Source: Bacteriovorax sp. BAL6_X (GTDB lineage Bacteria > Bdellovibrionota > Bacteriovoracia > Bacteriovoracales > Bacteriovoracaceae). From it: 64,000 nucleotides of DNA. The notes under the pieces were generated by a model. That model saw nothing but the letters and a program-made list of their open reading frames with translations. It made no database searches and had not been told where the DNA came from. Location: NCBI RefSeq assembly GCF_000443995.1, contig NZ_AUMC01000008.1:124001-188000 (forward strand), read 5' to 3'. This document shows positions 1,277-47,497 of the stretch, piece after piece (position 1 is the stretch's first letter; each line of letters starts with the position of its first letter). A program made the translations under genes and the position numbers.

Positions 1277-2368
1277 ATGTTCAAATCTCAAAAATTATTC
1301 ATCACAATTCTAATACTACTATCCACATCAATTTTTGCGAACGACTGCCAAGATATTCGACTCGACCAGGGTGAGAATGCGCCTTTTAAGAACTTGCCAA
1401 TTCATGATCAAATGTATGGAAAGCAGAAAGATTCTCAAATGTGCTATGCATTTGCAGGTTCTCAATTTATCGATGCAGTTATACAAAATGACTTAAAAGC
1501 AAAGGGACATATTACATCACCAATAACATCAGCACTACAAACGAAACTATCACCGACAAGAGCAAATGGGAGCAGAGTCAACCTACTCTCCAACATATCA
1601 AGAGGAGCTGGCCGCTCCGGACTAGGAGTCGGCCAGATTAATATCCTCTTTAATCAGCTAAGACAGGGTTACAGCTGTGATCAAAATTTTCTGACTTCAA
1701 TTGGAATTAAGGATCCAAATACTTTCTGGGAACCATTCGTATACGAGTTCTACTCGAATAAGACAGTAGAAGAAAAAATAAATTCTGTAAAAGAAGAGCT
1801 ACGACTTCGTGGTGTAAAAGAAGGTTTTTTCGATATTGTGAATGATGAAACTTTGGCGATTGCAGTTACAAAAAAAGGCTTCTACTTAAGAGAGCAAGCT
1901 ATCTTTGATAAGATATGTGAAAATAATAAAATCGAACTCAGTCTGCCAGAACTTGAGTACCATGACTACTCTCCTAGCGATGTTGGTTATAATGAAACAG
2001 ATGATGAATTCAAGAAACGTTTTCAAGTTGATGAAGTAAACCCACATGCCATCCAAAATATAAGCACAAGTCTTGAATCAGGAAACAACTTACCGGTTAT
2101 TGTAGATATCTGTGCGGAAGTCTTAACAGAAAAAGAAAAGAGCTTTAAACGCTCACTACCTGCTATGAATGGGAGCTGTAGCAATCACTCAGTCCTTGTG
2201 ATTGGCCAAAGAAAGGCCATGGACAACTCATGCCAATACCTCGTTAGAAATAGCTGGGGAGATTATAGAAATTATGACGAGGCCTGGGAAGTTGATGAGA
2301 AAGGACAGATATGGGTTGATGCTAAAACACTATCAAGTAGTATCCTAAAAGTTATTCATGCAAAATAA
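1277..2368 (+). CDS. Secreted papain-like (C1 family) cysteine protease
   Basis: 363 residues with a signal peptide (about residues 1-21). The catalytic set of clan CA is visible in order: oxyanion Gln50, Cys56 in SQMCYAFAG, His304 in SNHSVLVIG, and Asn325 in VRNSWGDY. The spacing from Cys to His (about 250 residues) is longer than in papain, with a helical, charged segment around residues 160-260 inserted. There is no obvious inhibitory propeptide, since the active-site Cys is only about 35 residues after the signal cleavage site. It stands alone. Extracellular or periplasmic proteolysis, perhaps of prey or host protein, is inferred from the family. Confidence 0.82.
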   Translation: MFKSQKLFITILILLSTSIFANDCQDIRLDQGENAPFKNLPIHDQMYGKQKDSQMCYAFAGSQFIDAVIQNDLKAKGHITSPITSALQTKLSPTRANGSRVNLLSNISRGAGRSGLGVGQINILFNQLRQGYSCDQNFLTSIGIKDPNTFWEPFVYEFYSNKTVEEKINSVKEELRLRGVKEGFFDIVNDETLAIAVTKKGFYLREQAIFDKICENNKIELSLPELEYHDYSPSDVGYNETDDEFKKRFQVDEVNPHAIQNISTSLESGNNLPVIVDICAEVLTEKEKSFKRSLPAMNGSCSNHSVLVIGQRKAMDNSCQYLVRNSWGDYRNYDEAWEVDEKGQIWVDAKTLSSSILKVIHAK

Positions 2369-2370
2369 AA

Positions 2371-2394
2371 AAGGGCCGTATAAATACGGCCCTT
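2371..2394 (-). terminator. Rho-independent terminator of fusA (possibly bidirectional)
   Basis: A 10-bp stem AAGGGCCGTA/TACGGCCCTT with a four-base loop. On the minus strand it is followed by a T-rich run (ttttttatttt), so it mainly serves fusA. It also lies directly behind the plus-strand protease gene. Confidence 0.85.
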
Positions 2395-2425
2395 CGAATA
2401 TAAATCAATATTTTTAAATATCGGC

Positions 2426-4591
2426 TTAATCTTCGTTTGCTAATTTCTCTTTACGTTCTTTCATAACTGTCTCTTGAATATTTGAAGGACAGTCAACGTA
2501 TCTTGCAAATTCCATCGTGTATGATGCTTTACCTTGAGACATCGATCTTAGGTCATTTGAGTAACCAAACATCTCTGAAAGTGGTACTTCAGCGTTGATG
2601 ATAACTTCTCCACCCGGATCAGTTTCTGAACCTTGGATCATCCCTCTTCTTGAAGAAAGGTCACCAATTACAGAACCTTGGAATTCATCTGGAGTTGTAA
2701 CTTCAACTTTCATAACTGGTTCCATAAGAACTGGTTGTGCTTTGTTGATAGCTTGTCTCATCGCTTGTCTTGCAGCAATACGGAATGCCATATCTGAAGA
2801 GTCAACGTCGTGTGACTTACCGTCTCTTAAGAATACTTCACAGTTAATAACTGGGAATGCAGCAAGAGGACCTTTATCCATAACGTCTTGGAAACCTTTT
2901 TCACAGGCACCGATGAATTCGTTAGGAATCGAACCACCTTTAATTTCGTTATTGAATTTAAATACCTGATCTTCTTTATCCTTATCTTCTTCAGCAAGAG
3001 GCTTAAGTAGACCAACAACCTGACCAAATTGACCAGAACCACCAGTTTGCTTCTTGTGAGTGTAATCAAAAGTAGCTTCAGTTCTGATTGTTTCACGGTA
3101 GTTAACCTGAGGAGCACCAACTTGTACTTCTGCACCGAACTCACGCTTTAATCTTTCTACGTAAATTTCAAGGTGTAGCTCACCCATACCAGCAATACGT
3201 GTTTCACCTGATTCTTCATCAGTGTATACGTGGAATGTCGGGTCTTCTTTAATAAATTTTGCAAGACCTTTAGACATTTTCGCTTGCTCGTTCTTATCCT
3301 TACAAGAAATCGAAAGCTCGATAACAGGGATTGGAACGTGGATACCTTCAAGAGAAAGGTTTAAGTTATCGTCGTTACCTACGAATGTATCCCCTGATGC
3401 ACAGTCGATACCTACGATAGCAATGATATCACCAGCGTGAGCTGTATCGATATTCTCTCTATCGTTAGAGTTCATACGAACCATACGTCCGATACGTACT
3501 TTTTTACCAGTTCTTGTATTATAAACAGTATCACCTTTATTTAGTGTACCTCTATAGATTCTTGTATAAGTCAGCTGACCAAATTGCTCATCAGTGATCT
3601 TAAATGCCATCGCAAGTAGATCTTCTGCTGGATCTGGATTAATTGTAACTGTTTCATCTGTATCTGAATCAACAGCAGTTGGTAGAGCACAAGTAAGTGG
3701 TGAAGGAAGGTATCTTGCAACAGCTTCAAGAAGTGCTTGAACACCTTTATTCTTGAATGCAGACCCCATGTAAACAGGAGTAAGTTGAAGAGATTGAACA
3801 CCTTTCTTAATACACATGTGAAGTTGTTCTTCAGTTGGCTCATTACCTTCTAGGTATGCTTCCATAACTTCATCATCGTACTCAGCTACAGCGTCAACCA
3901 TTTCAGATCTTAGTTCTTCCATCTGCTCAACAAGATCAGCTGGACATTCTTCGATTCTTACGTTTTCACCGTTATCACCATCAAAGTACATTGCTTGCTT
4001 AGTTACTAAGTCAACAACACCTGTGAACTGATCTTCTGCACCAATAGGGATTTGCATAAGAACAGCATTGTGGTTTAGCTTTTCTTTAAGTGCGTCACGT
4101 CCATTAAATGGGTTTGCTCCCATACGGTCCATCTTGTTTAAGAAGGCCATTCTAGGAACGTTATATCTTTTCATCTGTCTGTCTACAGTGATTGACTGAG
4201 ACTGAACACCAGATACTGAACAAAGAACTAGGATTGCACCATCTAGTACACGTAGTGATCTTTCAACCTCAACAGTGAAGTCAACGTGACCCGGAGTATC
4301 GATTAGGTTTACACGAGTGTCTTTCTCAACACCGTCAGCAAAAGTTGTCCCTTTACCTGTAATACCTTTCCAGTGTGCTGTCGTTGCAGCAGATGTAATT
4401 GTAATCCCTTTTTCCTTCTCTAGCTCCATGTGGTCCATAGTTGCACCAGCACCACCACCACGAACATCTTCGATCTTGTGGATCATGTCACAATAAAAAA
4501 GGATACGCTCTGAAAGAGTAGTCTTACCAGAGTCGATGTGCGCCGAAATACCGATGTTTCTCGTTTTCGCCATCAGCTTGTTGTTAATCAT
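2426..4591 (-). CDS. fusA: Translation elongation factor G, mitochondrial-EFG1/spdEFG1-like
   Basis: 721 residues, full length. EF-G is the GTPase that moves tRNA and mRNA through the ribosome. G1 is AHIDSGKTT, G3 is DTPGHVDF and G4 is NKMD; domains II-V follow. The wording resembles mitochondrial EFG1 rather than E. coli FusA: RNIGISAHIDSGKTTLSER at the N-terminus, GGGAGATMDHMELEKEKG in switch I, and EMFGYSNDLRSMSQGKASYT near the C-terminus. The start at 4591 is supported by GGAG seven bases upstream. Codon use is biased, as in highly expressed genes. It stands alone, without tuf or rps genes. Confidence 0.96.
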   Translation of the reverse strand: MINNKLMAKTRNIGISAHIDSGKTTLSERILFYCDMIHKIEDVRGGGAGATMDHMELEKEKGITITSAATTAHWKGITGKGTTFADGVEKDTRVNLIDTPGHVDFTVEVERSLRVLDGAILVLCSVSGVQSQSITVDRQMKRYNVPRMAFLNKMDRMGANPFNGRDALKEKLNHNAVLMQIPIGAEDQFTGVVDLVTKQAMYFDGDNGENVRIEECPADLVEQMEELRSEMVDAVAEYDDEVMEAYLEGNEPTEEQLHMCIKKGVQSLQLTPVYMGSAFKNKGVQALLEAVARYLPSPLTCALPTAVDSDTDETVTINPDPAEDLLAMAFKITDEQFGQLTYTRIYRGTLNKGDTVYNTRTGKKVRIGRMVRMNSNDRENIDTAHAGDIIAIVGIDCASGDTFVGNDDNLNLSLEGIHVPIPVIELSISCKDKNEQAKMSKGLAKFIKEDPTFHVYTDEESGETRIAGMGELHLEIYVERLKREFGAEVQVGAPQVNYRETIRTEATFDYTHKKQTGGSGQFGQVVGLLKPLAEEDKDKEDQVFKFNNEIKGGSIPNEFIGACEKGFQDVMDKGPLAAFPVINCEVFLRDGKSHDVDSSDMAFRIAARQAMRQAINKAQPVLMEPVMKVEVTTPDEFQGSVIGDLSSRRGMIQGSETDPGGEVIINAEVPLSEMFGYSNDLRSMSQGKASYTMEFARYVDCPSNIQETVMKERKEKLANED

Positions 4592-38662: not shown

Positions 38663-40606
38663 TTAAGCAACTTTTTTATCTTTATCCACTTCAGGAGCTT
38701 CTAGTTGATCAAGTATCTCTTGAGAATAAATCAACTTTTTACGAAGGGCCTCACGTGAGATTCCCATCTCTTTTGCAGCCTTAGACTTATTTCCAAAATT
38801 TCTTTTAATCTCATTAAGAATCATTTCACGCTCAACAAGAGCAAGACGATCTTTTAGAGGAAGTGTAAAATCTGTGACATGATCAATCTGTCCAAATTGC
38901 TTCTGCTTCATTGAAATATCAACTAGCGGAGATACTCCGTCATTGATTTCAATATCAGATATAATATGTGACTTTGGATGATATAGCACAGCTCTTTCAA
39001 TACATTTCTTTAATTCATAAATATTTCCAGGCCAGTCATACTGTAGGATTTGTTCCATAACCTTTTTAGAAAAACTCTTAAGTAAAAGGCCTTGTCTTTT
39101 ACACTCAACCTTTAAGAAATACTCAACAAGCATTTCAATATCATCTTCACGGCGTCTTAGTGGATCGATATTAATTTGAGCTTGTGATAAAAACTCAAAA
39201 AGATCACGATGAAATAGTCCCTCATCAGTTAGGATTCCAAGATCCTTAATCGATGTTGCCATAATACGACAATCAATACTTACAATACCACCTGAAGTAC
39301 CTCTGTTTGAGATAACTTCAAACAGTCTCTCTTGCCATTCGTAAGAAAGATTTTCAATATGATTAAGAACGACTGTTCCACCTTGTGTTTTCGAAAAAAC
39401 ACATTGATTTTCATCTGGGCCAAATAGCTGGGCCTCTAACTTATCCGTATCTTGTAATTTACAATTCACAGTATTTACTTCATGTAGTCCGCGCTTACCT
39501 TCAAAGTGCAGAACTGTTGCATAAAGATTCTTTCCAACTCCCTTCTCACCTGTAATAAGAACTGGACTATCAAGATCCTTTAGCTTTGAAATCGAGCTTC
39601 TCATCGACTTAACACCTGTTGTGTTTCCAATGATTGCATACTGACGATCATATGGAGCAGAGAAACGACGGATTTTTGAATTATTCGAGATAGGGTTAAA
39701 GCTATGGAATACTGATGAGAAAACAAGAGCTAAAACCTTCATTGTTTTTTCATCTTCAATAGTAAAACGATTTTCATTTCGCTTATTAATAACTTCAATT
39801 ACACCAATAATCTTATCTTCACGGTTATAAATAGGATAACAAATAATTGATTTTGTCGTGAATCCATTTTGCTCATCAAAGGCATTATTAAATCGCGACT
39901 CATCACTTTCAGTACAAATATTTAATGCGACCCCCGTTGTGAAAACAGAACCTGCAACACCAAGGCGATAATCAAACTTCAGGCCCGTCTTATCTAACCC
40001 TAAAGCAGCAATTGCTTCAAGCTCATTTGTATCTGGATTGATTAAAAAGATTGAAGAACGTTGTGCATTCAAAATACGAATAACTTCTTCAAGCATTGTA
40101 TCAAGAAAGCCTTCTTTATCACCAAAGTGAGTAATATCTTTGAATAGAGAAAGTAAAAGCGAGAACATTTCAAATCCTTCATTTGGATCTGTATAACGTT
40201 CTTTTAGTGCTGATTGAATCAGACAATCTTTTAATCTTTCTGAAGAAAAGCTCATGATATATGACTCTAGAAATTTATTAATTCCTTTTTCAACGTCAAG
40301 CTCAACACCATAGATAATCTCTTCATCTTCTAAAACATTTGAGAAGGCACGAACAACTCGCCCAGTTAAATCAAGATGCTTCTTTTTAAACTGAAGAGAA
40401 ACTTCTAGTTCTGTTCCAACAGAAATTCTCTCGTGTGTCTTAAAACCAAAACCAGTGATTGAAATATCAACAAGTTTAGCGTCATCGATATATTCGAGAT
40501 GGCCAACTTCATCTTCTTTTTGAATGAGAAAACGTAAGTTATCCGCTTCTTCAACTGGAATTCTAAATGATTGAAAGAACTTAAATTCTGAAAAACTGGC
40601 GAGCAT
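38663..40606 (-). CDS. PilZ-GAF-AAA+-Fis regulator, EBP-like but lacking GAFTGA
   Basis: 647 residues. N-terminal PilZ-like domain (about 10-110, DISITGFGF matching D-x-S-x-x-G, but the RxxxR motif is not clear). GAF domain about 165-300. An AAA+ domain follows with Walker A-like GEKGVGKN (353-360). The sigma54-binding GAFTGA loop is absent (the place reads LFGPDENQCVFSKTQGG), and Walker B is VVLNHIE in place of LFLDEI. The Fis helix-turn-helix near 590-630 is intact (NKSKAAKEMGISREALRKKL). Probably regulates without activating sigma54 by ATP hydrolysis. Divergent from speD. Confidence 0.88.
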   Translation of the reverse strand: MLASFSEFKFFQSFRIPVEEADNLRFLIQKEDEVGHLEYIDDAKLVDISITGFGFKTHERISVGTELEVSLQFKKKHLDLTGRVVRAFSNVLEDEEIIYGVELDVEKGINKFLESYIMSFSSERLKDCLIQSALKERYTDPNEGFEMFSLLLSLFKDITHFGDKEGFLDTMLEEVIRILNAQRSSIFLINPDTNELEAIAALGLDKTGLKFDYRLGVAGSVFTTGVALNICTESDESRFNNAFDEQNGFTTKSIICYPIYNREDKIIGVIEVINKRNENRFTIEDEKTMKVLALVFSSVFHSFNPISNNSKIRRFSAPYDRQYAIIGNTTGVKSMRSSISKLKDLDSPVLITGEKGVGKNLYATVLHFEGKRGLHEVNTVNCKLQDTDKLEAQLFGPDENQCVFSKTQGGTVVLNHIENLSYEWQERLFEVISNRGTSGGIVSIDCRIMATSIKDLGILTDEGLFHRDLFEFLSQAQINIDPLRRREDDIEMLVEYFLKVECKRQGLLLKSFSKKVMEQILQYDWPGNIYELKKCIERAVLYHPKSHIISDIEINDGVSPLVDISMKQKQFGQIDHVTDFTLPLKDRLALVEREMILNEIKRNFGNKSKAAKEMGISREALRKKLIYSQEILDQLEAPEVDKDKKVA

Positions 40607-40837: not shown

Positions 40838-41770
40838 ATGATTTTTGAAGGTTCAGAAAAGAAGGCCGAAATTATCGTTAAAGATGGCCTTAACTTACTA
40901 GAAATCCCTGATACTTTTTGGGCCCAGCTAGTTGAAAAAGCGAAAGCGACAATCCTTTCAAGTGTAAAAAATGAAAAGTTGAAAGCATTTCTACTTTCAG
41001 AGTCCTCTCTCTTTGTTTGGGAAGACAGAATGCTTATTATTACTTGTGGCCAGACGACACTTATTCAGGCCATTGACTTTTTTACTAGTGAATACGGAAA
41101 GGATTCAATTAAACAACTTATCTTTCAAAGAAAGAATGAGTACTTCTCTCATATGCAGCACTCAACTTTTATGGATGATATTAAACTTCTAGAAAATAAA
41201 TTTGATGGAACAGCATTTCGTTTCGGCAATATTGATGATCACCACAACTATATTTATTTCCTCGATCGAGAATACACTCCGTCTGTAGATGATCACACAT
41301 TTGAACTTCTAATGTACGAAATATCTTGTGAAGCGAGAAAACTTCTTACCGATGAAAATGTAACAAAAGAGCAGATCAGAGATTTATTAAAACTAGATGA
41401 AATCCTACCAGGTTTTGAACTTGATGATTTTGTCTTCAACCCATATGGCTATTCTTTAAATGCCATCAAGGATGACAACTACTTCACTTGCCACATTACT
41501 CCGCAAGAAGAGTGTCCGTATATTAGTTTTGAAACAGATATTGATATGAAGGAAATTGCTGGAGTGCTAATTGATGCAATGGAGCCAATCTCTTATGACT
41601 TCATTGAGTTCTGTCCAAATCAAGATGGAAACTGCGGGCTCAATGTAAACCCTGGAGAATACAAGGCAAAGACGCAAGTTGAAAGCTATTTAAAATGCGG
41701 CTATATCATGTACTTTTCACACTTTTATAAATTACGTACAAACCGCTTAACACCATACAAATTACTTTAA
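40838..41770 (+). CDS. speD: Eukaryotic-type S-adenosylmethionine decarboxylase proenzyme
   Basis: 310 residues. It resembles human/plant AdoMetDC along its full length: FEGSEKKAE (substrate-site Glu), the self-cleavage site LSESSLF with Glu55-Ser56 (pyruvoyl Ser), Cys70 in ITCGQTT, and FNPYGYSLNAI plus TCHITPQEE with Ser206 and His219, the processing residues of the human enzyme. Bacterial SpeD is usually a shorter protein of other sequence. The enzyme gives decarboxylated AdoMet, the aminopropyl donor. speE starts 23 bp downstream, on the same transcript. Confidence 0.93.
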   Translation: MIFEGSEKKAEIIVKDGLNLLEIPDTFWAQLVEKAKATILSSVKNEKLKAFLLSESSLFVWEDRMLIITCGQTTLIQAIDFFTSEYGKDSIKQLIFQRKNEYFSHMQHSTFMDDIKLLENKFDGTAFRFGNIDDHHNYIYFLDREYTPSVDDHTFELLMYEISCEARKLLTDENVTKEQIRDLLKLDEILPGFELDDFVFNPYGYSLNAIKDDNYFTCHITPQEECPYISFETDIDMKEIAGVLIDAMEPISYDFIEFCPNQDGNCGLNVNPGEYKAKTQVESYLKCGYIMYFSHFYKLRTNRLTPYKLL

Positions 41771-41793: not shown

Positions 41794-42660
41794 ATGCACA
41801 GTAACCTATGGATCGAAGAAAGATATAAAGATTTTTACGGGATGAGATATAAAGTAGAGAATGTTCTTTACTCGAAGAAAACAGAATTCCAAACTGTAGA
41901 CGTTGTCGAAACAAAGGGGCATGGAAAAATGCTTCTAAACGACGGACTAGTAATGGTAACAGAAAGAGATGAGATTGCTTATCACGATATGATTTCTCAC
42001 GTGCCACTATTTGTTCACCCAAATCCAAAAAACGTACTTGTTATCGGTGGTGGTGACGGTGGAACAGCAAGAGAAGTACTTCGTCATTCTTCAGTTGAAA
42101 AATGTACAATGGTTGAAATTGATGGTGCTGTTTGTGAAGCATGTATTGAATTCATTCCACAAACTGCAGAAGTTCTAAAAGGTCACCCAAAACTAGATCT
42201 AATCATCGGCGACGGTGTTAAATTTGTTCAAGAAACAACAGAGAAGTTTGATGTTATCATCATCGACTCAACTGACCCAATTGGACCAGCGGCCCCTCTA
42301 TTTGGCCCTGAGTTTTACACTAATGTAAATAAGTGCCTTGCTGAAAACGGTATCGTTGTTTCTCAAGGAGAATCGCCTTGGTTTGAGGCAGAAATTCAAA
42401 AGAGTATGCTCGGTGTTCTAAATGATATTTTCAAAAATACATTTATCTATAACTTCTCTAACCTAACATATCCTGGTGGACTGTGGTCATTTACTTTTGC
42501 AACAAAAGGCGACATTCACCCAATAAACGATTTTAGAGAAGACGCAGTAGCAGCAAGCGGACTTGAGTTCTCTTACTACAATGCAGGACTTCATAAGGCA
42601 GCATTCTACCTGCCAACATTTATGAAGAAAAACCTTGAAGGACTAATCCAAAACCCTTAA
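41794..42660 (+). CDS. speE: Spermidine synthase
   Basis: 288 residues. Moves the aminopropyl group of decarboxylated AdoMet to putrescine. Signatures: DGLVMVTERDEIAYHDMISHVPLF, VLVIGGGDGGTAREVLRH (nucleotide site), IDSTDPIGPA, and the gate-loop region QGESPWF. Usual length. Follows speD with AGGAG before the ATG. Its substrates come from speD and from the ADC/agmatinase pair at 44.6-47.5 kb. Confidence 0.95.
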   Translation: MHSNLWIEERYKDFYGMRYKVENVLYSKKTEFQTVDVVETKGHGKMLLNDGLVMVTERDEIAYHDMISHVPLFVHPNPKNVLVIGGGDGGTAREVLRHSSVEKCTMVEIDGAVCEACIEFIPQTAEVLKGHPKLDLIIGDGVKFVQETTEKFDVIIIDSTDPIGPAAPLFGPEFYTNVNKCLAENGIVVSQGESPWFEAEIQKSMLGVLNDIFKNTFIYNFSNLTYPGGLWSFTFATKGDIHPINDFREDAVAASGLEFSYYNAGLHKAAFYLPTFMKKNLEGLIQNP

Positions 42661-42675
42661 GGAAAAAGGATAATA

Positions 42676-43140
42676 ATGCAATACTGGCTCTTTAAAAGCG
42701 AACCTGATGCTTTCTCTATTGATGACCTCGCAAGGCGTCCGAAACAATCGGAATCTTGGGATGGAGTGCGAAACTATCAGGCCCGCAACTTCATGAGAGA
42801 TGAGATAAAACTTGGAGACAAGGTCTTCTTCTATCACTCAAGTTGCAAAGAGCCAGCTATCGTGGGACTTGCAGAAGTAGTCAAAGAGTCACATCCAGAT
42901 AAGACGCAATTTGATGAGAAATCAAAGTACTTTGACCCAAAGGCCACAAAAGAAGCTCCACGCTGGTTTCTTGTTGATATAAAATTTGTCGAAAAATTTT
43001 CTAAAGCATTAACGCTAAAAGAAATGAAAGCTGATAGTCGCTTTGAGGAGATGCCTTTGGTAAAAAAAGGCTCTCGCCTATCCATCATGCCAATTCCTAA
43101 AAAGATAGCGGCAACAATTTTAAAAGATATTAAAAACTAG
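42676..43140 (+). CDS. EVE-domain protein
   Basis: 154 residues, all of it an EVE domain: YWLFKSEPDAFSIDDL, WDGVRNYQARNFMRD, GDKVFFYHSSCKEPAIVGLAEV, PRWFLVDIKF. EVE folds recognise modified bases in DNA or RNA. It starts 15 bp after speE and so may share its transcript; no functional tie to polyamines is known to me. Ends overlap the next, convergent gene by 21 bases. Confidence 0.92.
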   Translation: MQYWLFKSEPDAFSIDDLARRPKQSESWDGVRNYQARNFMRDEIKLGDKVFFYHSSCKEPAIVGLAEVVKESHPDKTQFDEKSKYFDPKATKEAPRWFLVDIKFVEKFSKALTLKEMKADSRFEEMPLVKKGSRLSIMPIPKKIAATILKDIKN

Positions 43141-44647: not shown

Positions 44648-46561
44648 TTATTTTAAGTAAGTATAGCTTTTGAGACAATCTTCATAGAAGTCTACAAGAG
44701 ACACACCATCACGAGGACGAATCCTTCCACGTGACACCTGACGATCAATATAGCGTTTTACTTTAAAGGCCATAAACTCAGGATTATACTGCATTGTTGA
44801 AAGAACCTGACGTGCAGAATTTCCTTCAACAGTCTCTTCAATATAAAATCCCTTTGGATCGTCACTATCTGCGTAGACGTGAACTTCATTAACTCGTCCA
44901 AAAAGGTTGTGCATATCACCCATAACATCCTGGTAGGCTCCTGTTAAGAAAATACCAATGCGATACTCCTCACCTTCATTTAGCTGATGAACTGCAATTG
45001 TCTTTTTAAACCCTTCATCAGGATCATAAAAGCGATCAATCTTCCCATCACTATCACATGTAATATCTGCAAGAGTTGATCTCTTAAGAGGTTTTTCGTT
45101 AAGACGTGTAAGTGGAACAACAGGTAGAACTTGTTCGATGGCCCAGCTGTCACATGCAGATTGAAACACAGAAAAGTTACATAAGTATTGGCCACTTAGG
45201 GTATTCTCAAGATCCTGCATTAGTTCCGATTGAAAATCTTCTTCAGGAACTAGAGAATTAATTTCTTTAAGAATACGCAGATGCATAGTCTCAATTTTCG
45301 CTCGTTCTTCAAGCTCAAGAATCCCAAGTTTAAAAGCATGAATTGAATCAGTCTTAATTTTCAAAGCATCATTATATGCTTCTTGCCAATTTTTTGTTTT
45401 TTCTAAAACTTCACCAACTTGTCTCATCTCAGTAACGAGATTATGTTCACCTGTTTCTTGCTTAGTTGAAAACTCAATCTTTGTGTTATCAATTTCACCA
45501 ATGATATTTGTGATAACGCAACTATGGTGTGCCGTGATTGCGCGTCCACTCTCAGTGATAATATGCGGGTGCTCGACACCTTCTAGATCACATACAGACT
45601 TTAGTCCGTAAACGATATCAGTAATATAGTCTGTAATTGAATAATTAATTGATGAATCGTTTGTTGAGTTTGTCCCATCGTAGTCAACACCAAGTCCACC
45701 ACCAACATCAAAATACTGCAGAGGAGCACCAATTTTTTGCATCTTACAATAGATTCGAGAGCCCTCTTCAATTGCTTCTTTAATTGAGCGGATATCAGTA
45801 ATTTGAGATCCAATATGGAAGTGAAAGAGCTTTAACATATCCAAGCGATCATGCTTTTTTAAGAACTCAATGGCCAAGATAATTTCAGAAGTCGTTAAAC
45901 CAAACTTCGCCTTATCTCCACCACTAGATTCCCATTTACCGCGGCCCTTAACAGACATGCGGCCTCGAATTCCAATAAATGGAATTACCCCATGCTCCTT
46001 ACCAAGCTCAACAAGCATGCGCAGTTCAGAGAATTTTTCAATAACGACAAATATCTTACGTCCTAGTTTTGCTCCAAGTATAGCAAGCTTTAGATAGTCA
46101 CGATCTTTGTAACCGTTTAAAACAGTAAGAGAGTCGGCGTTATTATTATAGGCAAGAGCAGAAAGAAGCTCAGGCTTAGATCCAGCTTCAAGTCCGTAAT
46201 TGTAGCGAGAGCCAGCATCAACAATTTCTTCAACGACTTCTCTCATTTGGTTTACCTTGACAGGGTAAACACCAAAAAATTTCCCGCGATAATCTTCATC
46301 ATCAATTACCTTTTGAAAGGTATTATTTAAAAGCTTTACTTGCGAGCGTAAAATATCATGGAAACGAATTACTAAAGGAAGTTGAATTCCTTGTTCTTTT
46401 GCTTCTTCAATAACGTCATTAATAACGATTCCAACATTCTTATTTGGATTTGGAGTCGCTTTAAGTTGTCCATTTTCTTCGATCTTAAAATAACCGTTAC
46501 TCCACTTACTTACGTTGTAGAGGCGATCAGAATCTTGAATTGTCCAAGTCTCATTTGTCAT
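44648..46561 (-). CDS. speA: Biosynthetic arginine decarboxylase
   Basis: 637 residues, usual for SpeA. Turns arginine into agmatine and CO2; PLP alanine-racemase-type fold. The PLP Lys lies in YPVKVNQMREVVEE; FHIGSQITDIRSIKEA, YFDVGGGLGVDYDG and ITESGRAITAHHS are characteristic. Near the C-terminus, a stretch with GAYQDVMGDMHNLFGRVNEVH completes the site. It begins 21 bp after agmatinase, so the order speB-speA is one transcript. Confidence 0.96.
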   Translation of the reverse strand: MTNETWTIQDSDRLYNVSKWSNGYFKIEENGQLKATPNPNKNVGIVINDVIEEAKEQGIQLPLVIRFHDILRSQVKLLNNTFQKVIDDEDYRGKFFGVYPVKVNQMREVVEEIVDAGSRYNYGLEAGSKPELLSALAYNNNADSLTVLNGYKDRDYLKLAILGAKLGRKIFVVIEKFSELRMLVELGKEHGVIPFIGIRGRMSVKGRGKWESSGGDKAKFGLTTSEIILAIEFLKKHDRLDMLKLFHFHIGSQITDIRSIKEAIEEGSRIYCKMQKIGAPLQYFDVGGGLGVDYDGTNSTNDSSINYSITDYITDIVYGLKSVCDLEGVEHPHIITESGRAITAHHSCVITNIIGEIDNTKIEFSTKQETGEHNLVTEMRQVGEVLEKTKNWQEAYNDALKIKTDSIHAFKLGILELEERAKIETMHLRILKEINSLVPEEDFQSELMQDLENTLSGQYLCNFSVFQSACDSWAIEQVLPVVPLTRLNEKPLKRSTLADITCDSDGKIDRFYDPDEGFKKTIAVHQLNEGEEYRIGIFLTGAYQDVMGDMHNLFGRVNEVHVYADSDDPKGFYIEETVEGNSARQVLSTMQYNPEFMAFKVKRYIDRQVSRGRIRPRDGVSLVDFYEDCLKSYTYLK

Positions 46562-46582: not shown

Positions 46583-47497
46583 CTAAGACTTCGTTTTGCT
46601 AGTTAAAAGTAGAATCATTTCCCTTACAACTTTTGCAGCAAAAACAGAACTATTCCCAGATGAGTCAATCTCAGGAGCTAGCTCAACAATATCACAACCT
46701 ACTATATTCTTTTCTAATAGGATTTTTACAAAACTAATAAATGAATGAAAGTCTTCTCCACCAGGCTCTGGTGTTCCAGTTCCAGGAAAGAAACTTGGAT
46801 CGAAGTAGTCCAAATCAAGTGTTAAGTATACCGGACGATTCGCCGGGATTGCACGAACTCGATCTAAGAACTCTGCACGCGATTTTGCAATAGTTCCATT
46901 CTCATTCATGTACTCATATTCTTCTTTTGTACCAGAGCGAATCCCATATTGAATAAGATTATGCTTTGGCCCAAAGTGATCAAGGCTTCGCTTGATAATT
47001 GAGGCATGTGAATAATGGTAACCAAGATATCCATCACGAAGATCAGCATGAGCATCAAGATGAATTAAAACAAGATCCTCAAAGTCTTGCAGGTACTTCT
47101 TAATTGGAGCATAAGAAATTGAATGCTCTCCACCAAGAGTCATAATTTTTATATCGTTTTCTTTTAAATTAATATGATCAAAATTCTCTTCGAAACAAGC
47201 AGTCGCAACCTTCCAACTCTCCTCTTGTTGATCTGCAACTGGAAGATTTCCAAGATCATAGAAAGTGCAATCTTCAGTTGAAAGATCAAGATATGGTGAA
47301 TAGGTTTCAATACCATCAGAAACTTCTCTTAAAGCATCTGGCCCTAAGCGTGTCCCCTTTCTAAAACATGCCGTTCCATCAAAACCAAAACCAACAAGGT
47401 TAACACTATGAGGTCTAACTTCGTCAGTAACAATTGCCATATCGTAAGGCGTATTTGGGGCCTCAAGCCCCGCTAATTTCCATAAGTTCTTTTCCAT
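46583..47497 (-). CDS. speB: Agmatinase (SpeB-like ureohydrolase)
   Basis: 304 residues. Cleaves agmatine to putrescine and urea. The binuclear Mn site is visible: GGEHSI, HLDAHADLRDGY, and LTLDLDYFDPSFFPGTGTPEPGG. The last matches the agmatinase/arginase signature. Placed directly upstream of speA; with speD and speE it completes a route from arginine to spermidine. Substrate is inferred from context; related enzymes use guanidinobutyrate or arginine. Confidence 0.92.
   Translation of the reverse strand: MEKNLWKLAGLEAPNTPYDMAIVTDEVRPHSVNLVGFGFDGTACFRKGTRLGPDALREVSDGIETYSPYLDLSTEDCTFYDLGNLPVADQQEESWKVATACFEENFDHINLKENDIKIMTLGGEHSISYAPIKKYLQDFEDLVLIHLDAHADLRDGYLGYHYSHASIIKRSLDHFGPKHNLIQYGIRSGTKEEYEYMNENGTIAKSRAEFLDRVRAIPANRPVYLTLDLDYFDPSFFPGTGTPEPGGEDFHSFISFVKILLEKNIVGCDIVELAPEIDSSGNSSVFAAKVVREMILLLTSKTKS

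What the first reader, a model, noticed from the sequence alone, without database searches (positions are those of the whole stretch)
40838..41770. Eukaryotic-type AdoMet decarboxylase in a bacterial polyamine locus
The speD gene looks like human/plant AdoMetDC over its whole length, including the LSESS self-cleavage site and the Ser206/His219 processing pair. Bacteria normally use one of two shorter SpeD classes. Placed before spermidine synthase, it is clearly functional. Either horizontal transfer from a eukaryote or an ancient bacterial branch of that class is possible.
Basis: partly seen in the sequence, partly recalled or inferred. Interest (0 to 1): 0.75.

Follow-up and report, generated by a model that had tools for sequence, protein, structure and literature searches.

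The report
Two-domain AdoMet decarboxylase in a bacterium
This bacterium prepares the building block for the polyamine spermidine with the same two-domain kind of enzyme that animals and plants use; this is real but not unique, because a quarter of its phylum and at least eight other bacterial phyla have it too, and it did not come recently from a eukaryote.

Summary
Window 40838-41770 (+) encodes a 310-aa S-adenosylmethionine decarboxylase of the two-domain "class 2" (eukaryotic) type. It matches PF01536 (E 1e-55), has the Glu55-Ser56 cleavage site, Cys70 and the Ser206/His219 processing pair, and its AlphaFold model overlays human AdoMetDC over 296 residues (Z 36.8). It precedes speE, near speA and agmatinase, and the genome has no class 1 SpeD, so it most likely supplies decarboxylated AdoMet for spermidine.

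The exotic reading shrinks. Class 2 genes occur in 91 of 369 Bdellovibrionota genomes, and 355 loci were found across GTDB species, in at least nine bacterial phyla. In this phylum class 2 and class 1 largely replace each other. The window protein sits deep in a Bdellovibrionota clade; grouping it directly with eukaryotes is rejected (AU p 0.004). It is a long-resident bacterial branch. Bacterial class 2 enzymes are already published (cited in PMC10407285), read there as acquired from eukaryotes.

The ultimate direction stays open: three sampled eukaryotes, a Desulfobacterales clade and a Bdellovibrionota clade form three separate sides of an unrooted tree. Some bacterial forms keep more class 1 similarity than eukaryotic ones, a weak hint of bacterial origin.

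The parts
40838..41770 (+). speD, class 2 S-adenosylmethionine decarboxylase proenzyme, 310 aa
   Evidence: ORF; PF01536 E 1e-55; PDB phmmer human AdoMetDC E 1.2e-32; AlphaFold model pLDDT 92.8 matching 1jl0 Z 36.8
40838..41002 (+). codons 1-55, predicted beta chain ending in Glu55; holds Phe3, Glu4, Glu7, Glu11
   Evidence: aligned to human 1-67; these residues conserved in 146-150 of 151 bacterial sequences; cleavage itself inferred
41003..41005 (+). Ser56, predicted pyruvoyl precursor
   Evidence: Invariant in 151 of 151 bacterial class 2 sequences, equal to human Ser68
41045..41047 (+). Cys70, equivalent of the human catalytic Cys82
   Evidence: 151 of 151
41453..41455 (+). Ser206, processing serine (human Ser229)
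   Evidence: 150 of 151
41492..41494 (+). His219, processing histidine (human His243)
   Evidence: 151 of 151
41794..42660 (+). speE, spermidine synthase, 288 aa
   Evidence: TIGR00417 313.7 bits (cut-off 249.6), PRK00811 347 (cut-off 260); the same gene directly follows class 2 speD in 117 of 149 loci counted
42676..43140 (+). EVE-domain protein following speE
   Evidence: PF01878 E 1e-59; also beside speE in many loci of the same family
44648..46561 (-). speA, biosynthetic arginine decarboxylase
   Evidence: TIGR01273 714 bits, cut-off 624
46583..47497 (-). speB, agmatinase
   Evidence: TIGR01230 223 bits, cut-off 174

Best explanation
The gene is a bacterial class 2 AdoMet decarboxylase that has long been resident in the Bdellovibrionota. 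The proenzyme folds as two fused class-1-like domains, cleaves itself between Glu55 and Ser56 with help from Ser206 and His219 of the second domain, turns Ser56 into a pyruvoyl group, and decarboxylates AdoMet. The product goes to the SpeE encoded next door, with putrescine made by the nearby SpeA and agmatinase, giving spermidine. It takes the place of class 1 SpeD in this genome. Shown here: homology, residues, predicted fold, operon, absence of class 1, and placement in the tree. Inferred: self-cleavage, activity, any putrescine effect, and the product.
For: PF01536 over nearly the whole protein. All processing and catalytic residues present. The model matches the human proenzyme, and Thermotoga class 1b chains match each half separately, residues 4-105 and 148-264. 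SpeE, SpeA and agmatinase above curated cut-offs. No PF02675 in the genome. In the phylum 91 genomes have class 2 and 159 have class 1, with 10 in both where 39 would be expected; the class 1 form checked in a sister genus is the E. coli type, TIGR03331. The gene sits inside a clade of its own family (100/99) within a Bdellovibrionota-dominated group. GC3 is 0.328 against a window median of 0.302, sd 0.037.
Against: No biochemical data. The protein is below the eukaryote-tuned TIGR00535 cut-off (129.5 against 233.15), as were all seven other bacterial class 2 proteins scanned. Human Lys80 in the putrescine site is Ile, and Glu247 is Gln. A tree in which the whole family clade joins the eukaryotes is 35 log units worse but not formally rejected (AU p 0.096). 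The replacement counts ignore kinship between genomes.
Confidence: 0.9

Rival explanations
1. Recent horizontal transfer: this bacterium, or its genus, took the gene from a eukaryote.
For: The protein type is the one found in eukaryotes; human, potato and T. brucei chains are clear relatives.
Against: Closest sequences are same genus and family; the three eukaryotes are among the worst of its hits. Window plus eukaryotes as one clade is rejected, AU p 0.0037. Base composition is native.
Confidence: 0.02
2. One ancient transfer from an early eukaryote to bacteria, followed by spread among bacteria (the published reading).
For: Stated in PMC10407285, citing Li et al. 2019, a paper not held here. 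The three eukaryotes lie on one side of a branch, so bacteria could be a single derived group. The distribution is patchy: 2 of 395 genomes in the phylum of Desulfonema, 30 of 194 in its order, 8 of 199 in the phylum of an Elusimicrobiota genome.
Against: No bacterial row falls among the eukaryotes. Desulfobacterales and Spirochaetota C-domains score medians of 13 and 17 bits against a class 1 model, eukaryotes 3.5-7.9, shuffles at most 5.5.
Confidence: 0.45
3. Class 2 arose in bacteria by fusion of two class 1 domains and eukaryotes acquired it from them.
For: Bacterial class 2 proteins keep more class 1 similarity. PMC10407285 reports SpeD-SpeDC fusions with a degraded second domain in Desulfobacterales, the order where class 2 is also frequent. 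Several separate, deeply divergent bacterial clades exist.
Against: Only three eukaryotic sequences; the tree is unrooted; eukaryotic branches are long, which alone lowers similarity to class 1. The independent Pfam class 1 model gives only E 0.0018 and 0.011 for two hand-picked best cases and nothing for the window.
Confidence: 0.4
4. The gene is a class 2 relative with another substrate or role, as known for some SpeD homologues.
For: SpeD homologues that decarboxylate ornithine or arginine are known (PMC10407285). Lys80 and Glu247 differ from human.
Against: Adjacent spermidine synthase, complete putrescine supply, no other AdoMetDC in the genome, class 1 replaced.
Confidence: 0.05

Closest known systems
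Class 2 (eukaryotic) AdoMetDC, PF01536; human AMD1 structures 1jl0 and 1msv
   Same: Two-domain proenzyme, Glu-Ser cleavage site, Cys, Ser/His processing pair, acidic putrescine-site residues, fold over 296 residues
   Different: About 30% identity; shorter by some 20 residues; Lys80 to Ile, Ser113 to Gln, Glu247 to Gln; in an operon with speE; below the TIGR00535 cut-off
Bacterial class 2 AdoMetDC cited in PMC10407285 (Li et al. 2019, Biochem J 476:2579; the paper itself is not held)
   Same: Class 2 enzyme encoded by bacteria
   Different: That work is cited as showing acquisition from eukaryotes; here the type is found widely in Bdellovibrionota and in eight other phyla, and the window gene is long resident. 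Whether this lineage was among those studied could not be checked.
T. brucei AdoMetDC (5tvf) and potato AdoMetDC (1mhm)
   Same: Same fold and core residues; Ile at the Lys80 position is shared with T. brucei
   Different: One PF01536 gene in the genome, so no prozyme paralogue of that family; no Arg at the potato Arg114 position (Ile95 here)
Class 1a and 1b SpeD (PF02675, TIGR03331, TIGR03330)
   Same: Same reaction; each half of the window model matches Thermotoga class 1b structures
   Different: No PF02675 match; class 1 subunits have one domain

Membership tests
Class 2 AdoMetDC (PF01536) | Family model over its curated cut-off across most of the protein | tested here: met
   189.7 bits against 22.2, residues 2-250, model 3-288 of 343
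Class 2 AdoMetDC (PF01536) | Internal Glu-Ser cleavage site in LSESS, catalytic Cys, Ser/His processing pair | tested here: met
   Glu55, Ser56, Cys70, Ser206, His219
Class 2 AdoMetDC (PF01536) | Two class-1-like domains fused in one chain | tested here: met
   1jl0 Z 36.8 over 296 residues; Thermotoga class 1b on 4-105 and on 148-264
Class 2 AdoMetDC (PF01536) | Autocleavage, pyruvoyl group and AdoMet decarboxylase activity | not testable with these tools
   Needs expression and assay
Putrescine-activated (animal-type) class 2 AdoMetDC | Acidic putrescine-site residues (human E11, E15, D174, E178, E256) | tested here: met
   E7, E11, D152, E156, E232; D174 and E15 as site residues are named in PMC5201418, the others from my own knowledge
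Putrescine-activated (animal-type) class 2 AdoMetDC | Lys80 in the putrescine site (role from my own knowledge) | tested here: not met
   Ile68; Ile or Leu in all 151 bacterial sequences, Ile in T. brucei. So it is not filed as animal-type
NCBI equivalog TIGR00535 | Score above curated cut-off | tested here: not met
   129.5 against 233.15
Class 1 SpeD (PF02675) | Match to the class 1 model | tested here: not met
   No hit for the protein or anywhere in the genome, while 8 of 14 control genomes rang

The most novel reading that the evidence does not exclude
Class 2 AdoMetDC, described as a eukaryotic invention, arose in bacteria; bacterial lineages kept it, and the ancestor of eukaryotes received it from a bacterium.
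Probability: 0.38. Interest if true: 0.7.

Novelty: new member of a known kind. Interest (0 to 1): 0.38.

Why it matters
The gene itself is a further bacterial class 2 AdoMetDC. Its wider value is that the Bdellovibrionota, Desulfobacterales and other lineages give a large, diverse bacterial sample with which the accepted view, that this enzyme was invented in eukaryotes and passed to some bacteria, can be tested directly. The alternation of class 2 with the E. coli-type enzyme inside one family is also a natural case of one enzyme form displacing another in the same pathway.

Tried and rejected
Recent transfer from a eukaryote: rejected. Viral source: no class 2 relative in IMG/VR with the patterns used; PMC9992855 also reports none in viruses. 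Second AdoMetDC in the genome: none found. Reading the 2019 primary paper: not held. More eukaryotic sequences: none available here beyond PDB chains; a search for the motif in papers gave no printed sequences. Rooting by class 1 profiles: the class 2 N-halves give almost no signal and the C-halves a weak one, too weak to root a tree. Promoter and terminator scan: no more promoter-like sites than shuffles give. The PF01536 hits in G057 and the second one in G039 lie below the cut-off, and no class 2 relative was found in those stretches.

Full report
Observation. The ORF at 40838-41770 (+) is 310 codons long with an ATG start. It matches Pfam PF01536, the eukaryotic-type AdoMet decarboxylase, at E 1e-55. 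Against solved structures the best match is human AdoMetDC, E 1.2e-32; a profile of 29 bacterial relatives finds the human proenzyme at E 1.7e-69. The match is far beyond chance. TIGR00535, which I take to be tuned on eukaryotic proteins, gives 129.5 bits, under its cut-off of 233. Seven other bacterial class 2 proteins from seven phyla score 143-194, also under it.

Residues. On an alignment of 151 bacterial sequences with human, potato and T. brucei, the window has Glu55-Ser56 (human 67-68), Cys70 (82), Ser206 (229), His219 (243), Phe3 (7), Glu4 (8) and Phe200 (223). The putrescine-site acids are Glu7, Glu11, Asp152, Glu156 and Glu232, with Phe258 and Tyr289; Asp174 and Glu15 of the human site are named in PMC5201418, the rest are from my own knowledge. 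Differences from human: Lys80 is Ile68 (Ile or Leu in all bacteria, Ile in T. brucei), Ser113 is Gln97, Glu247 is Gln223. The Arg that potato has at the position of human Phe111 is Ile here. Putrescine stimulation is therefore plausible but not certain.

Fold. The AlphaFold model, made from window and locus sequences only, has mean pLDDT 92.8. It matches human 1jl0 over 296 residues, Z 36.8, rmsd 2.2 A; Thermotoga class 1b chains match residues 4-105 and, separately, 148-264, Z 9.4. This is the two-domain class 2 architecture.

Surroundings. speE follows 23 bp downstream, then an EVE-domain gene; speA and agmatinase lie on the other strand 2-5 kb away. speE, speA and agmatinase are above curated NCBI cut-offs. 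The genome (3.23 Mb, 99.98% complete) has no PF02675 protein and one PF01536 protein. So the locus encodes a complete arginine to spermidine route in which this gene is the only recognisable AdoMet decarboxylase. In loci from other genomes, speE directly follows class 2 speD in 78 of 85 Bdellovibrionota loci (the anonymous and named sets overlap), 23 of 35 Desulfobacterales loci, 7 of 8 Elusimicrobiota, 4 of 4 Spirochaetota and 2 of 2 Acidobacteriota; it is not adjacent in the Myxococcota and Gammaproteobacteria sampled.

Distribution. PF01536 is found in 91 of 369 genomes of the phylum, 53 of 182 genera. That the phylum is Bdellovibrionota follows from anonymous contigs that recur under names: G201:C1 and G269:C25 have the exact lengths of JAUHWH010000007 and DJMA01000033, titled Bdellovibrionia and Bdellovibrionaceae, and G111:C8, of the window's own family, has that of JAURQB010000055, titled Bdellovibrionota. 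A scan of one genome for each of 84,980 species found 355 class 2 loci; the best 80 lie in Thermodesulfobacteriota (35), Bdellovibrionota (16), Elusimicrobiota (8), Spirochaetota (4), Myxococcota (4), Gammaproteobacteria (3), Acidobacteriota (2), Planctomycetota (1), Eiseniibacteriota (1) and records without a named phylum (6). Outside Bdellovibrionota it is patchy: 2 of 395 genomes spread over the phylum of Desulfonema, but 30 of 194 in its order; 8 of 199 in the phylum of an Elusimicrobiota genome. The viral collection gave none.

Replacement. Class 1 (PF02675) occurs in 159 of the 369 genomes; only 10 genomes have both, where 39 would be expected. In the window's own family (taken as handles G000-G127) the counts are 40 and 77 with 9 shared. 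A class 1 protein checked there is the E. coli type (TIGR03331), and two more of like length match PF02675. Three of the four genomes with both that I looked at (G076, G113, G119) have a ~360-aa class 1 protein beside a ~500-560-aa protein with spermidine-synthase similarity, a different cluster, also present in G004, which lacks class 2. The Fisher p values ignore kinship. Of 19 class 2 genomes outside the phylum, 18 have no class 1 match, though their completeness is not told.

Tree. In a 60-row tree the eukaryotes form one side of a branch (98/93), a Desulfobacterales-dominated set another (95/98) and a Bdellovibrionota-dominated set the third (99/96). The window lies in a 13-row set, 100/99, of its own family plus two Gammaproteobacteria and one Myxococcota row, which look like transfers between bacteria. 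A 91-row tree agrees. Joining the window alone with the eukaryotes costs 72 log units, AU p 0.0037; joining the whole 13-row set costs 35 units, p 0.096, which is not a formal rejection. By BLAST the window's best hits are 66% and 64% identical (same genus), then 54-48% (same family); T. brucei, human and potato rank among the last. Human is as similar to Desulfobacterales proteins (bit scores up to 187) as to potato (171).

Direction. The tree is unrooted. Bacterial C-halves mostly score above the eukaryotic ones against a class 1 model built here: Desulfobacterales median 13.2, best 25.3, Spirochaetota median 17.4, Bdellovibrionota median 9.1, window 7.5, eukaryotes 3.5-7.9, shuffled at most 5.5; but Elusimicrobiota, Gammaproteobacteria and Acidobacteriota medians (4.4-4.9) are no better than the eukaryotes. 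The independent Pfam class 1 model finds two of the best bacterial cases at E 0.0018 and 0.011, below its cut-off, and none of the eukaryotes, nor the window. This hints that some bacterial forms are nearer to the class 1 ancestor, but faster change in eukaryotes would give the same pattern, and the cases were picked for their score.

Limits of the eukaryotic sample. The potato beta chain (residues 1-72) was taken from the bait, which hit 1mhm_B over 1-72 but was not printed. The human row follows the printed 1msv and 1jl0 chains, each of which carries one mutation where the other has the natural residue, with the first few residues from memory. The T. brucei row ends at alpha-chain residue 239 of 285.

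Known work. PMC10407285 says that some bacteria encode class 2 AdoMetDC, that phylogeny indicates they came from eukaryotes (citing Li et al. 2019), that class 2 appears to be a eukaryotic invention, and that SpeD-SpeDC fusions with a degraded C-terminal domain exist in Lentisphaerota and Desulfobacterales. The 2019 paper could not be read.

Verdict. A real, probably functional class 2 AdoMetDC; a new member of a known bacterial set; not a recent eukaryotic acquisition; ultimate direction open.

Noticed in passing
L177, L178, L180, L183: Genomes of the same family carry a ~360-aa PF02675 protein next to a ~500-560-aa protein with spermidine-synthase similarity and a ~366-390-aa protein (no Pfam match for the L177 one); a conserved cluster apart from speD-speE, perhaps a use of decarboxylated AdoMet outside spermidine synthesis.
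   Followed up: partly
L069:1087-1887 and 1868-3499 (-); L068:955-1875: Very divergent class 2 relatives in another family of the phylum; the L069 one (266 aa, only its N part matches PF01536) overlaps by a few bases a 543-aa protein with a spermidine-synthase domain.
   Followed up: partly
window 42676-43140: An EVE-domain gene follows speE and is kept beside it in many loci of the family; its link to polyamines is unknown.
   Followed up: no
window 38663-40606 (-): A sigma-54 activator with PilZ and GAF domains is transcribed away from speD and is conserved there in the closest relatives; a possible regulator.
   Followed up: no
L078:3609-5921: A Desulfobacterales class 2 ORF of 770 codons, far longer than the usual 310; another open frame of 790 in G1103; possible N-terminal fusion or simply a missed start.
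   Followed up: no
L152-L171: Another family of the phylum (genus g52 and relatives) carries class 1b SpeD as the N-terminal part of a ~430-aa protein, apparently fused to spermidine synthase.
   Followed up: partly
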